From positions 62,001 through 126,000 of the forward strand of contig CANTEW010000001.1 of NCBI GenBank assembly GCA_947652925.1: a DNA stretch of 64,000 nt, given 5' to 3'. Source of the stretch: an uncultured Lachnospiraceae bacterium. GTDB taxonomy: Bacteria > Bacillota > Clostridia > Lachnospirales > Lachnospiraceae. This document shows, in pieces, positions 50,096-52,512 of the stretch. Positions within the stretch are counted from its first letter, which is position 1, and each line of letters opens with the position of its first letter. A model generated the notes under the pieces. That model saw only the letters and a program-made list of their open reading frames with translations. It made no database searches and was not told the origin of the DNA. The translations under genes and the position numbers were made by a program.

Positions 50096-50124
50096 AAAGG
50101 TGAGCATCTATCCAGGTGGTATCC

Positions 50125-50949
50125 ATGAAAGAATATCTGTTGACCTGCCTCACTCTGCTGTTTGTCATCCTGCTCTCACCTTTTCTCCTGACATATCTCC
50201 TCTCCGGTGAGGATTCCTGCCCTCTATACAAGCCCCCAGACATAGAGCGATACCTGCCCGCCATCGTCTACCTGCAGATCCCCTACACCCACCATCTGGA
50301 AAATATCAAAGCCCAGACCATCCTTGCCCGTACCAATATCAAACTGCAGATGGAAAACGGCACGACCTTCTCTACTCTCATGAAAAAACCCTTGGATCAT
50401 CTGGCTCATGAACAGGGGGTCACCGATCTTCTCCATACATATGAACGCTTCATCCGGGCCGCCCGGGATACCCGCGGGCAGGTCCTTACTTATCAGGACC
50501 AGAAAGTGATCCTCCCCTATTGCTATGCGACCACCGGGAGTACCCGGGACGGGGCCGACCTGCTGCACAGTGAGGGATATGGATACCTGGTCCCCGTAGA
50601 AAGCCCCCAGGATCGGCAGGCAGATAACTATATGTCCAGTATATATTCCCCCAGCGCCGACCACTACCAGGAGATCCAGATCCTGTCCCGGGATGGATCC
50701 GACTATGTCCTCACCCTCAGAGCCGGAGGGGAACTCATGTCCGGAGAAGAGTTCCGCCGGATGCTGGGACTCCCCTCCAGCGCGTTCACCCTCCAGGAAG
50801 TCAATGGACAGACGCGCATCTTATGCCAGGGCCACGGCCACGGCCTGGGCTTTTCCCAGTATGGCGGCAACGTCCTGGCCGCACAGGGCAAGACCTGCGC
50901 CCAGATCCTCCAACACTATTTCCCGCGTCTCTCCCTGGATCTGGAATGA
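50125..50949 (+). CDS. spoIID: stage II sporulation protein D (SpoIID)
   Basis: A 274-residue SpoIID/LytB-domain protein with one N-terminal membrane helix (about residues 4-24). It is a lytic transglycosylase of the engulfment machinery, trimming septal peptidoglycan from the mother-cell side. The domain starts near VYLQIPYTHHLENIKAQTIL and ends with GHGHGLGFSQYGGNVLAAQG and CAQILQHYFPR. The catalytic glutamate usually found in the PxExxxAQAVAAR motif is not evident (HHLENIKAQTILART here, where E57 may fill the role). The ATG at 50125 follows AGGTGG. The sigma-E-like promoter upstream and the SpoIIQ-like gene downstream support the identity. Confidence 0.9.
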   Translation: MKEYLLTCLTLLFVILLSPFLLTYLLSGEDSCPLYKPPDIERYLPAIVYLQIPYTHHLENIKAQTILARTNIKLQMENGTTFSTLMKKPLDHLAHEQGVTDLLHTYERFIRAARDTRGQVLTYQDQKVILPYCYATTGSTRDGADLLHSEGYGYLVPVESPQDRQADNYMSSIYSPSADHYQEIQILSRDGSDYVLTLRAGGELMSGEEFRRMLGLPSSAFTLQEVNGQTRILCQGHGHGLGFSQYGGNVLAAQGKTCAQILQHYFPRLSLDLE

Positions 50950-50953
50950 ACAG

Positions 50954-51193
50954 GCTCGCCCATCGTCCTGCCGCTTGCCGGGACTTTCATAGTGAGCGGA
51001 CATGTCTGCACACGCAGACATCAACATAAATGAAAGTCAGCTGCTCCGTGCTCCCGCACTCCCACAGCTTCCGCCTATATGGATGATCCGGGCTATCGCC
51101 CTACTCATCCATACAGGTCAGCCCGTCAAATGTCAGAACGCATGTGCGAGCAAGCTCGCCCATCGTCCTGCCGCTTGCCGGGACTTTCATAGT
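50954..51193. repeat. hairpin-rich element, copy A, flanked by 40-bp direct repeats
   Basis: An exact 40-base direct repeat (GCTCGCCCATCGTCC...CTTTCATAGT) occurs at 50954-50993 and 51154-51193. Between them are stem-loops: ATGTCTGC/GCAGACAT (51002-51021), AGCTG-GTGC/GCAC-CAGCT, a long stem CCTATATGGATGA/TCATCCATACAGG around GGGCTATCGCCC, and GCGAG/CTCGC. The same layout occurs at 61197-61368 with compensatory differences. It fills most of the 326-base gap between spoIID and the SpoIIQ-like gene. Confidence 0.75.
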
Positions 51194-51209
51194 AAATTTC
51201 TAAAAAAAA

Positions 51210-51239
51210 TGCATAGAGTTTCATATTTTGGAAATCCTA
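51210..51239 (+). promoter_or_regulatory. sigma-F-type forespore promoter of the spoIIQ-like gene
   Basis: TGCATA (51210-51215), 14 bases, GGAAATCCTA (51230-51239). The known sigma-F consensus is WGCATA-N14/15-GGNRANAMTW; one position in the -10 element differs. Forespore transcription is what a spoIIQ gene should have. Confidence 0.6.
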
Positions 51240-51275
51240 TGGCTATAAGAAATTGAAAAACAGAGGTGAAAGAGT

Positions 51276-52046
51276 ATGACAAAGAAAACGAGATTGATCC
51301 GGATCATTGTGAACAGCGTGCTCGTCGTAGCGATCATCGCACTCGCTGTAACAGTATATCAGGCCGGAACACAGCGCAACGACGATGGAGCCACGTTACC
51401 CCAGATCGCCGCGGAAGATGATGGAAAGGCTCTTGGCAGTACGACAGCCCCCATGGTAGACGCCGGGACTTCTGATGTGGAAGCAGACGTAGAACCGACC
51501 CTGGCAGCAGAAACAGAAGAAGGAACTGCCGCTGAGGAGGAGGTCGCCCAAGCAGAGACACCTGAAGAAGAGACAGAGAGTACCGATGCCGCTGCCGAGG
51601 CAGAAGCCTCCGCTCCTGTCATCGACGTGAACTTTACAGAAGAGAGTCTGATGGATTGGCCACTGGAAGGCCAGGTCCTCCTGGACTACAGCATGGACCA
51701 CACCATCTACCACCCAACACTGGATCTCTACAAATACAGCAAAGGGATCGCGATCCAGTCATCCGTGGGTTCTCCAGTCATGGCAGCTTCAAACGGCACT
51801 GTACTGTCCATCGAAGAGATGTCTGAAACAGGCACCACAGTCGTTCTGGATCTGGGTAACGGTTATCAGAGCACTTAGGGCCAGCTGAGAGACCTAAACG
51901 TAGTCGTGGGCCAGACCATCCCGAAGGGGACCATCCTGGGTTATGTCAATGAACCCACAAAATATTACACAGAAGAAGGATGCAATCTCTACTTTGCCAT
52001 GAGCAAGGACGAGACCCCGATCGATCCCATCCAATACCTGCCATAA
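51276..52046 (+). pseudogene. spoIIQ: SpoIIQ-like M23/LytM protein interrupted by an in-frame TAG
   Basis: The first 200 codons encode a short cytoplasmic tip, one membrane helix (about 10-29), an Ala/Glu-rich linker and the start of a LytM domain. Codon 201 is TAG (51876-51878), and the same frame then continues for 55 codons with plainly homologous sequence (GQLRDLNVVVGQTIPKG, GYVNEPTKYYTEEGCNLYFA, PIDPIQYLP) to TAA at 52046. The context GYQST-stop-GQL matches GYxxTYGQL in relatives, so TAC or TAT to TAG is the simplest history. The zinc ligands of active M23 enzymes are absent even upstream, as in scaffold-type SpoIIQ. Without readthrough the domain is truncated and the channel with SpoIIIAH should fail. 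Confidence 0.85.
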
Positions 52047-52080: not shown

Positions 52081-52272
52081 AAGAAAGTAACATGCCATAT
52101 TGAAAATCCGCAATCGCATCCGTACAAAAAGCCATCCATGGCCCAAAATACGACAGCACAAAAGTTTTTCTTCAATATGGTGATCTACTTTCGCCGATTG
52201 CTTGACATAAATGACCGGGCGGCCAGGCCAGTGAATGGCCGGGCGCCCTGTACATATATAAAGGACACAGAT

Positions 52273-52512
52273 ATGGATTATACATATATCGTAAAGTGCC
52301 GGGACGGTACTCTATATACTGGATGGACCAATGACCTGGAAAAAAGGATCCGCGACCACAACCGTAAAAAAGGCGCCAAATACACCAGAAGCCGCACACC
52401 CGTAGAACTCCTGTACTATGAAGCATTTTTTACAAAGAGCGAGGCGATGAAAAGAGAATATGAGATCAAACAACTCTCGGCCAGGGATAAGTGGCGGATG
52501 ATCCTTGGATAG
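52273..52512 (+). CDS. GIY-YIG nuclease-family protein (UPF0213-like)
   Basis: A 79-residue single-domain protein of the GIY-YIG/URI family. TYIVKCRDGTLYTGWTNDLE holds the two-tyrosine strand pair (YIV and YTG), RIRDHN the arginine, and YYEAF the usual metal-ligand glutamate. Small stand-alone members such as YhbQ/YazA act on nucleic acid, with unclear roles. AAAGGA precedes the ATG. It is transcribed from a promoter at 52052-52080 and followed by the DUF4317 gene. Confidence 0.9.
   Translation: MDYTYIVKCRDGTLYTGWTNDLEKRIRDHNRKKGAKYTRSRTPVELLYYEAFFTKSEAMKREYEIKQLSARDKWRMILG

What the first reader, a model, noticed from the sequence alone, without database searches (positions are those of the whole stretch)
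51276..52046. Amber codon splits a SpoIIQ-like forespore gene
The frame stays open and homologous for 55 codons after TAG at 51876-51878, and the broken position is a conserved tyrosine in GYxxTYGQL. SpoIID upstream looks intact. Loss of SpoIIQ blocks engulfment-stage signalling in known spore formers, so this strain may be recently asporogenous, may suppress TAG, or the base may be a sequencing error.
Basis: partly seen in the sequence, partly recalled or inferred. Interest (0 to 1): 0.75.

Follow-up and report, generated by a model that had tools for sequence, protein, structure and literature searches.

The report
Nonsense codon in gut bacterium's spoIIQ
In this draft genome of a gut bacterium, a gene probably needed to wrap the developing spore carries one apparently recent stop codon; it is an ordinary broken gene, or possibly an assembly error, and not a sign of a new way of reading the genetic code.

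Summary
In window 51276-52046 an in-frame TAG (51876-51878) splits a reading frame into 200 and 55 codons. The gene is very probably the SpoIIQ orthologue: it follows spoIID, as in C. difficile, and its family profile matches SpoIIQ first among solved structures. Three same-genus genomes have it intact (81-84% identity). Codons after the stop remain under strong constraint (dN/dS 0.06-0.07), so the stop is recent. No second spoIIQ was recognised; the partner SpoIIIAH is intact. TAG suppression is disfavoured: TAG ends 108 of 465 long ORFs sampled, RF1 is intact, PylS is absent, and no CUA tRNA was seen, though the tRNA list is incomplete. Among 104 orthologue pairs only spoIIQ is interrupted; outside them ygeW carries one TGA. 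Best reading: a real, recent loss-of-function allele (0.6). Main rival: a base error or minority allele in what looks like a metagenome bin (0.3). Side result: SpoIIQ lacks both zinc motifs in 30 of 30 aligned sequences, and the adjacent SpoIID lacks its catalytic glutamate in 14 of 19.

The parts
50116..50949 (+). spoIID (GTG 50116 or ATG 50125); open reading frame, but the catalytic Glu position is Gln (YLQIP)
   Evidence: best solved match C. difficile SpoIID 5i1t, E 2.3e-22, Q aligned with the E of GVLAGEMSS
51031..51189 (-). Clostridiales-1 RNA (RF01699), part of a dispersed repeat, between spoIID and spoIIQ here and not in the G001, G002 or G004 orthologous loci
   Evidence: 86.6 bits, gathering 48; repeat copies; intergenic comparison
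51204..51275 (+). leader of spoIIQ, nearly invariant in four species, with AGAGGTG as likely ribosome-binding site (recalled motif); a sigma-F-type promoter is plausible but was not tested
   Evidence: Alignment
51276..51878 (+). 5' part of spoIIQ: hydrophobic N terminus, linker and first half of the LytM domain, ending at the stop
51876..51878 (+). in-frame TAG at a column that is Tyr in 25 of 29 relatives
51879..52046 (+). 3' remnant of spoIIQ, 55 codons plus TAA: second half of the LytM domain, still under purifying selection

Best explanation
This is the spoIIQ gene of a Lachnospiraceae-type gut bacterium. It has recently taken a single nonsense mutation inside the LytM domain. Shown: the stop, intact orthologues in three congeners, continued constraint after the stop, and no second recognisable spoIIQ. 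Well supported: that the gene is SpoIIQ. Inferred: translation ends at residue 200, the half-domain does not fold, SpoIIQ cannot dock with the still intact SpoIIIAH across the forespore septum, and engulfment and late forespore signalling fail in most cells. The strain would then sporulate poorly.
For: Stop and open downstream frame. Both halves match M23. Intact orthologues at 81-84%. dN/dS after the stop 0.063 and 0.071; 0.012-0.033 for the M23 part before it. One residue unique to G000 after the stop, where about 12 replacement changes would be expected had the branch been unconstrained throughout (P about 7e-5; rough parsimony). Profile of 16 intact relatives: SpoIIQ entries 3uz0 and 3tuf are the first two of 37 (E 3.3e-16, 1.2e-15). 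SpoIID-like gene upstream in 22 of 29 relatives' loci. Three M23 matches in G000 at E <= 0.001; the other two have a different architecture and closer non-SpoIIQ relatives. Four other sporulation families uninterrupted. Against pure sequencing error: no frameshift and only this interruption among 104 orthologue pairs, while ygeW shows another isolated stop.
Against: One genome only; no second strain and no reads. The smallest of 100 contigs is 2,565 bases and many tRNA genes sit at contig ends, which suggests a metagenome bin, where a single base can be a consensus error. At 1e-5 errors per base about one false stop per genome is expected. Uninterrupted partner genes and a conserved leader fit an error as well as a very recent mutation. 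On identity: with the single intact orthologue G002 as query, ordinary M23 peptidases come first in the PDB and SpoIIQ is seventh (33.2 bits against 40.7), and the NCBIfam SpoIIQ model gives it only 46.5 bits against a cut-off of 250, less than the 51.2 bits of the C50 M23 gene.
Confidence: 0.6

Rival explanations
1. The stop is a base error or a minority allele picked up in the assembly; the population's spoIIQ is intact.
For: Single lesion in an otherwise constrained gene with a conserved leader; the assembly looks like a metagenome bin; about one false stop per genome is expected at 1e-5 errors per base; the four other sporulation families checked are uninterrupted.
Against: Two clear nonsense interruptions (spoIIQ, ygeW) and one possible (a weakly ParB-like gene) in 465 ORFs would need roughly 1e-4 errors per base if all were errors (from the figures), yet no frameshift appeared in 104 orthologue pairs.
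Confidence: 0.3
2. TAG is read through by a suppressor tRNA or as a reassigned codon, so full-length SpoIIQ is made.
For: Strong constraint after the stop. The tRNA list is incomplete, with no Tyr, Ser, His, Cys or Ile tRNA in it. A second gene, weakly ParB-like, may also be split by TAG.
Against: TAG ends 108 of 465 ORFs (23%) against 125 of 722 (17%) in G004, so it is not avoided. Open tails of 30 or more codons follow TAG in 32 of 148 cases (22%), in proportion to its use. RF1 intact. PylS best hits 22.6 and 20.6 bits against a cut-off of 178. No CUA anticodon in the tRNAs seen. ygeW is interrupted by TGA, not TAG.
Confidence: 0.04
3. SpoIIQ is dispensable in this lineage, so the truncation is neutral and long-standing.
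For: The LytM zinc site is degenerate in all 30 sequences aligned and the neighbouring SpoIID lacks the catalytic Glu, so engulfment here may work differently.
Against: M23-domain dN/dS between 0.012 and 0.073 in the 11 of 12 segment comparisons where it could be computed among the four congeners; no relaxation on the G000 branch.
Confidence: 0.06

Closest known systems
SpoIIQ of Bacillus subtilis (3uz0, 3tuf; the organism is recalled)
   Same: Degenerate LytM domain; best match of the family profile
   Different: Here the frame is cut by a stop in the LytM domain; 3tuf_B beyond residue 182 has no counterpart in the alignment.
SpoIIQ (CD0125) of Clostridioides difficile
   Same: Gene order spoIID-spoIIQ (PMC4982068, figure legend seen)
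   Different: C. difficile SpoIIQ has intact LytM zinc residues (start of the abstract; PMC6934232 passages); none of the 30 sequences aligned here has a complete motif.
Former-spore-formers of gut Firmicutes (PMC8340488)
   Same: Sporulation loss is known in Lachnospiraceae: 18% are former spore formers (passages)
   Different: [quoted passage not shown] here the four other sporulation families checked and the spoIID frame are uninterrupted.

Membership tests
SpoIIQ | N-terminal TM helix followed by a LytM/M23 domain | tested here: met
   M23 matches in both halves; hydrophobic stretch near the N terminus seen by eye, no TM predictor run
SpoIIQ | Closer to SpoIIQ than to other LytM proteins | tested here: inconclusive
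   Family profile: the two SpoIIQ entries are first of 37. Single orthologue G002: SpoIIQ is 7th and 8th of 24, behind five M23 peptidase sequences and one membrane metallopeptidase
SpoIIQ | NCBIfam SpoIIQ equivalog cut-off (NF053738, apparently Bacillus-type) | tested here: not met
   Intact orthologue G002 scores 46.5 bits against 250; I therefore call it a SpoIIQ orthologue by profile and synteny, not a member of that equivalog
SpoIIQ | Clostridial gene order spoIID-spoIIQ | tested here: met
   Window, and 22 of 29 relatives' loci; 7 had no hit, two of them starting close to a contig end
SpoIIQ | Partner SpoIIIAH encoded in the genome | tested here: met
   G000:C39, 185.9 bits, no stop
SpoIIQ | Forespore expression and binding to SpoIIIAH | not testable with these tools
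   Needs experiment
Functional, unbroken spoIIQ | Uninterrupted reading frame | tested here: not met
   TAG 51876-51878
TAG-recoding genome | PylS present, or TAG avoided as terminator | tested here: not met
   PylS absent, TAG in normal use
TAG-recoding genome | tRNA with CUA anticodon | tested here: inconclusive
   None seen, but the list of 30 may be capped and lacks five amino acids
Clostridiales-1 RNA | Match over the Rfam gathering score, full model | tested here: met
   86.6 bits against 48, model 1-166 of 166

The most novel reading that the evidence does not exclude
A spore-forming gut lineage caught at the first step of sporulation loss: one nonsense mutation in spoIIQ while the other sporulation genes checked stay intact, so the order of loss can be read (a stage II forespore gene first). 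A bolder side reading: in this order engulfment runs with a zinc-free SpoIIQ and often a SpoIID without its catalytic glutamate, so SpoIIP alone or an unknown enzyme cuts the septal wall.
Probability: 0.35. Interest if true: 0.45.

Novelty: new member of a known kind. Interest (0 to 1): 0.25.

Why it matters
If real, it is a recent natural knock-out of an engulfment gene in a gut commensal, useful for asking how sporulation is lost and how transmission changes. If it is an error, it warns against calling gut bacteria non-sporulating from one draft genome. The wider pattern of eroded catalytic sites in SpoIIQ and SpoIID may matter more for the study of engulfment.

Tried and rejected
Second spoIIQ. 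The other two M23 matches of G000 are a protein with cell-wall-binding repeats (C50) and a membrane LytM endopeptidase closest to 3nyy (C53). C50's M23 part is closest to ordinary M23 peptidases (80.3 bits; SpoIIQ 37.8), although on the NCBIfam SpoIIQ model it scores 51.2 bits, slightly above the orthologue's 46.5. No SpoIID-like ORF was seen by eye among ORFs of 150 or more residues in the 1.5-kb flanks of either. Rejected, but not by a functional test.

Pyrrolysine and suppression: see rivals; rejected as main reading, with the tRNA inventory incomplete.

Widespread decay or a frameshift-prone assembly. Of 723 G004 ORFs, 191 had a hit in the G000 stretches and 104 of these had 60% identity or more; the other 87 were dropped for identity, none for coverage. 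Three of 104 were flagged; by eye two are stops in out-of-frame or upstream sequence and only spoIIQ is real. The reverse control flagged 5 of 103 in G004 (164 of 465 had a hit): four with stops upstream of the likely start and one at the C-terminal end. In an earlier comparison of contig C1 with one contig each of G002 and G004, 27 matches passed and five were flagged: spoIIQ twice, a 5' extension of murG, one frame antisense to spoIIQ, and one unresolved 51-residue match at C1 136572-136724. A cruder run without overlap filtering flagged more frames, which I did not resolve one by one.

Reference-free screen: 148 tails, the top 40 printed; besides spoIIQ I looked at five. Two are ordinary neighbouring genes, ygeW and the ParB-like gene are candidates, and a 34-codon tail after TAG at C5 52077 stayed undecided.

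Other strains of the same species: none available. The genome-contig scan returned only the three congeners (the window's own record may be left out there); a plasmid search found nothing.

A pair count with an empty structure was pointless and returned an error.

Full report
What is there. TAG at 51876-51878 interrupts a reading frame that starts at ATG 51276 and would otherwise run to TAA 52044-52046. The part before the stop has 200 residues, the part after it 55. Pfam M23 covers the two halves separately, profile positions 2-47 and 51-96, so a product ending at the stop has half a LytM domain.

What gene it is. A search of 61 genomes (G000 and 60 relatives) found a match in 58; many of these are weak hits to other M23 genes. 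No listed match except that of G000 has a stop inside. The first record is titled 'Clostridia bacterium isolate B62_62_CS_H'; the other two are uncultured Lachnospiraceae metagenome bins. G003 (61% complete) has only a weak hit. A profile of 16 intact relatives finds SpoIIQ first among solved structures (3uz0 E 3.3e-16, 3tuf 1.2e-15). Two results go against a simple naming: the single orthologue G002 finds ordinary M23 peptidases first and SpoIIQ seventh, and the NCBIfam SpoIIQ model gives it 46.5 bits, far below its cut-off of 250. Identity therefore rests on the family profile and on gene order: a SpoIID-like gene lies upstream in 22 of 29 relatives' loci, as in the spoIID-spoIIQ operon of C. 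difficile (PMC4982068, figure legend seen).

How old the stop is. The stop column is Tyr in 25 of 29 relatives. Post-stop codons have dN/dS 0.063 against G002 and 0.071 against G001; against G004 dS is saturated. The M23 part before the stop has 0.012-0.033 for G000; the part after the stop is the less constrained one in the three pairs not involving G000 too (0.036-0.048 before, 0.047-0.073 after), so this difference does not point to relaxation in G000. By a strict four-species count the G000 branch has one unique residue change and four unique synonymous changes after the stop; the other three branches have 1-3 and 1-7. If constraint had been lost over the whole branch, about 12 replacement changes would be expected (P about 7e-5, rough). 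The stop is therefore young, read through, or false. About 70 bases upstream are nearly invariant in the four species.

Is TAG suppressed? TAG ends 108 of 465 ORFs of 100 residues or more in 557,893 bases of this genome, and 125 of 722 in G004. Open tails of 30 or more codons follow TAG in 32 of 148 cases, in proportion. RF1 is intact at 537 bits. PylS has only weak cross-hits, 22.6 and 20.6 bits against a cut-off of 178. The Rfam tRNA search returned exactly 30 matches, which may be a cap; ARAGORN on those loci found no CUA anticodon, nor did it in the C1-C5 stretches or C81-C100. The list lacks Tyr, Ser, His, Cys and Ile tRNAs, so it cannot be taken as complete.

How unusual is it here? Among 104 orthologue pairs with G004 at 60% identity or more, three were flagged and by eye only spoIIQ was a real interruption; the reverse control gave 5 of 103 flagged and none real. 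A reference-free screen of the 465 ORFs, of which I inspected five further tails, gave two more candidates: ygeW with a single TGA, intact in G003 and over the matched part in G001, and a gene split by TAG whose first half is only weakly ParB-like (17.7 bits, cut-off 58.45) and whose second half has no NCBIfam match. Isolated nonsense alleles thus occur in this genome or assembly, with TGA as well as TAG. The smallest of 100 contigs is 2,565 bases, which suggests a metagenome bin (inference). At 1e-5 errors per base about one false stop per genome is expected, so a single stop cannot be certified without reads.

What it should do. [quoted passage not shown] C. difficile spoIIQ mutants were mostly blocked in engulfment but gave heat-resistant spores at about 0.5% of wild type (passages of PMC4605598). 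SpoIIIAH, SpoIVA, Spo0A and SpoVAC/EB matches are uninterrupted in G000. A strain with this stop should sporulate very poorly; no phenotype was or could be tested.

Side results. None of 30 aligned SpoIIQ sequences has a complete HxxxD or HxH motif; at HxxxD no sequence has the H or the D, and four keep the first His of HxH. In 14 of 19 SpoIID proteins whose N-terminal region could be aligned (the window and 18 of the 22 loci with a hit; four partial hits were left out), the catalytic Glu column is another residue: Q in 8, S in 2, V in 2, R in 1, Y in 1; five keep E. The column was tied to C. difficile SpoIID by alignment with 5i1t; passages of PMC6934232 give the motif GVVxxEMP/S with E101 catalytic. 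That review calls the Glu highly conserved in clostridial species and the SpoIIQ motifs highly conserved across Clostridia, and its main text has no occurrence of 'Lachnospiraceae'. Galperin and colleagues (PMC3533761, passages) have a supplementary figure on LytM substitutions that I did not see, so I make no priority claim. Searches for SpoIID with Lachnospiraceae, engulfment and catalytic and for spoIIQ with nonsense mutation listed one review and nothing. A Clostridiales-1 RNA (RF01699) within a dispersed repeat sits between spoIID and spoIIQ only in G000 among the four congeners compared.

Verdict. A well-observed, probably real and recent nonsense allele of a known gene, with sequence error as a live alternative. 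Ordinary in kind; interest is modest unless confirmed in reads or other strains.

Noticed in passing
window 50116-50946 and 18 relatives' SpoIID: Catalytic Glu of SpoIID replaced in 14 of 19 aligned proteins, Gln in all four congeners compared.
   Followed up: partly
window 51735-52043 and 29 relatives' SpoIIQ: No complete LytM zinc motif in any of 30 SpoIIQ sequences, unlike the published statement for Clostridia (PMC6934232 passages).
   Followed up: partly
window 51031-51189 (-): Clostridiales-1 RNA (RF01699) inside a dispersed repeat with 12 matches in G000 and 28 in G002, present between spoIID and spoIIQ only here among the congeners compared; a 46-base copy of one end lies at 50948-50993.
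   Followed up: partly
G000:C2:28227-29417 (L119): ygeW (knotted carbamoyltransferase) interrupted by one in-frame TGA; intact in G003 and over the matched part in G001.
   Followed up: partly
G000:C3:1904-2842 (L100): Weakly ParB-like gene possibly split by an in-frame TAG.
   Followed up: no
window 52138-52512: GIY-YIG nuclease-like gene (recalled name, no family search) follows spoIIQ here and in the G001, G002 and G004 loci, where I recall C. difficile having spoIIID.
   Followed up: no
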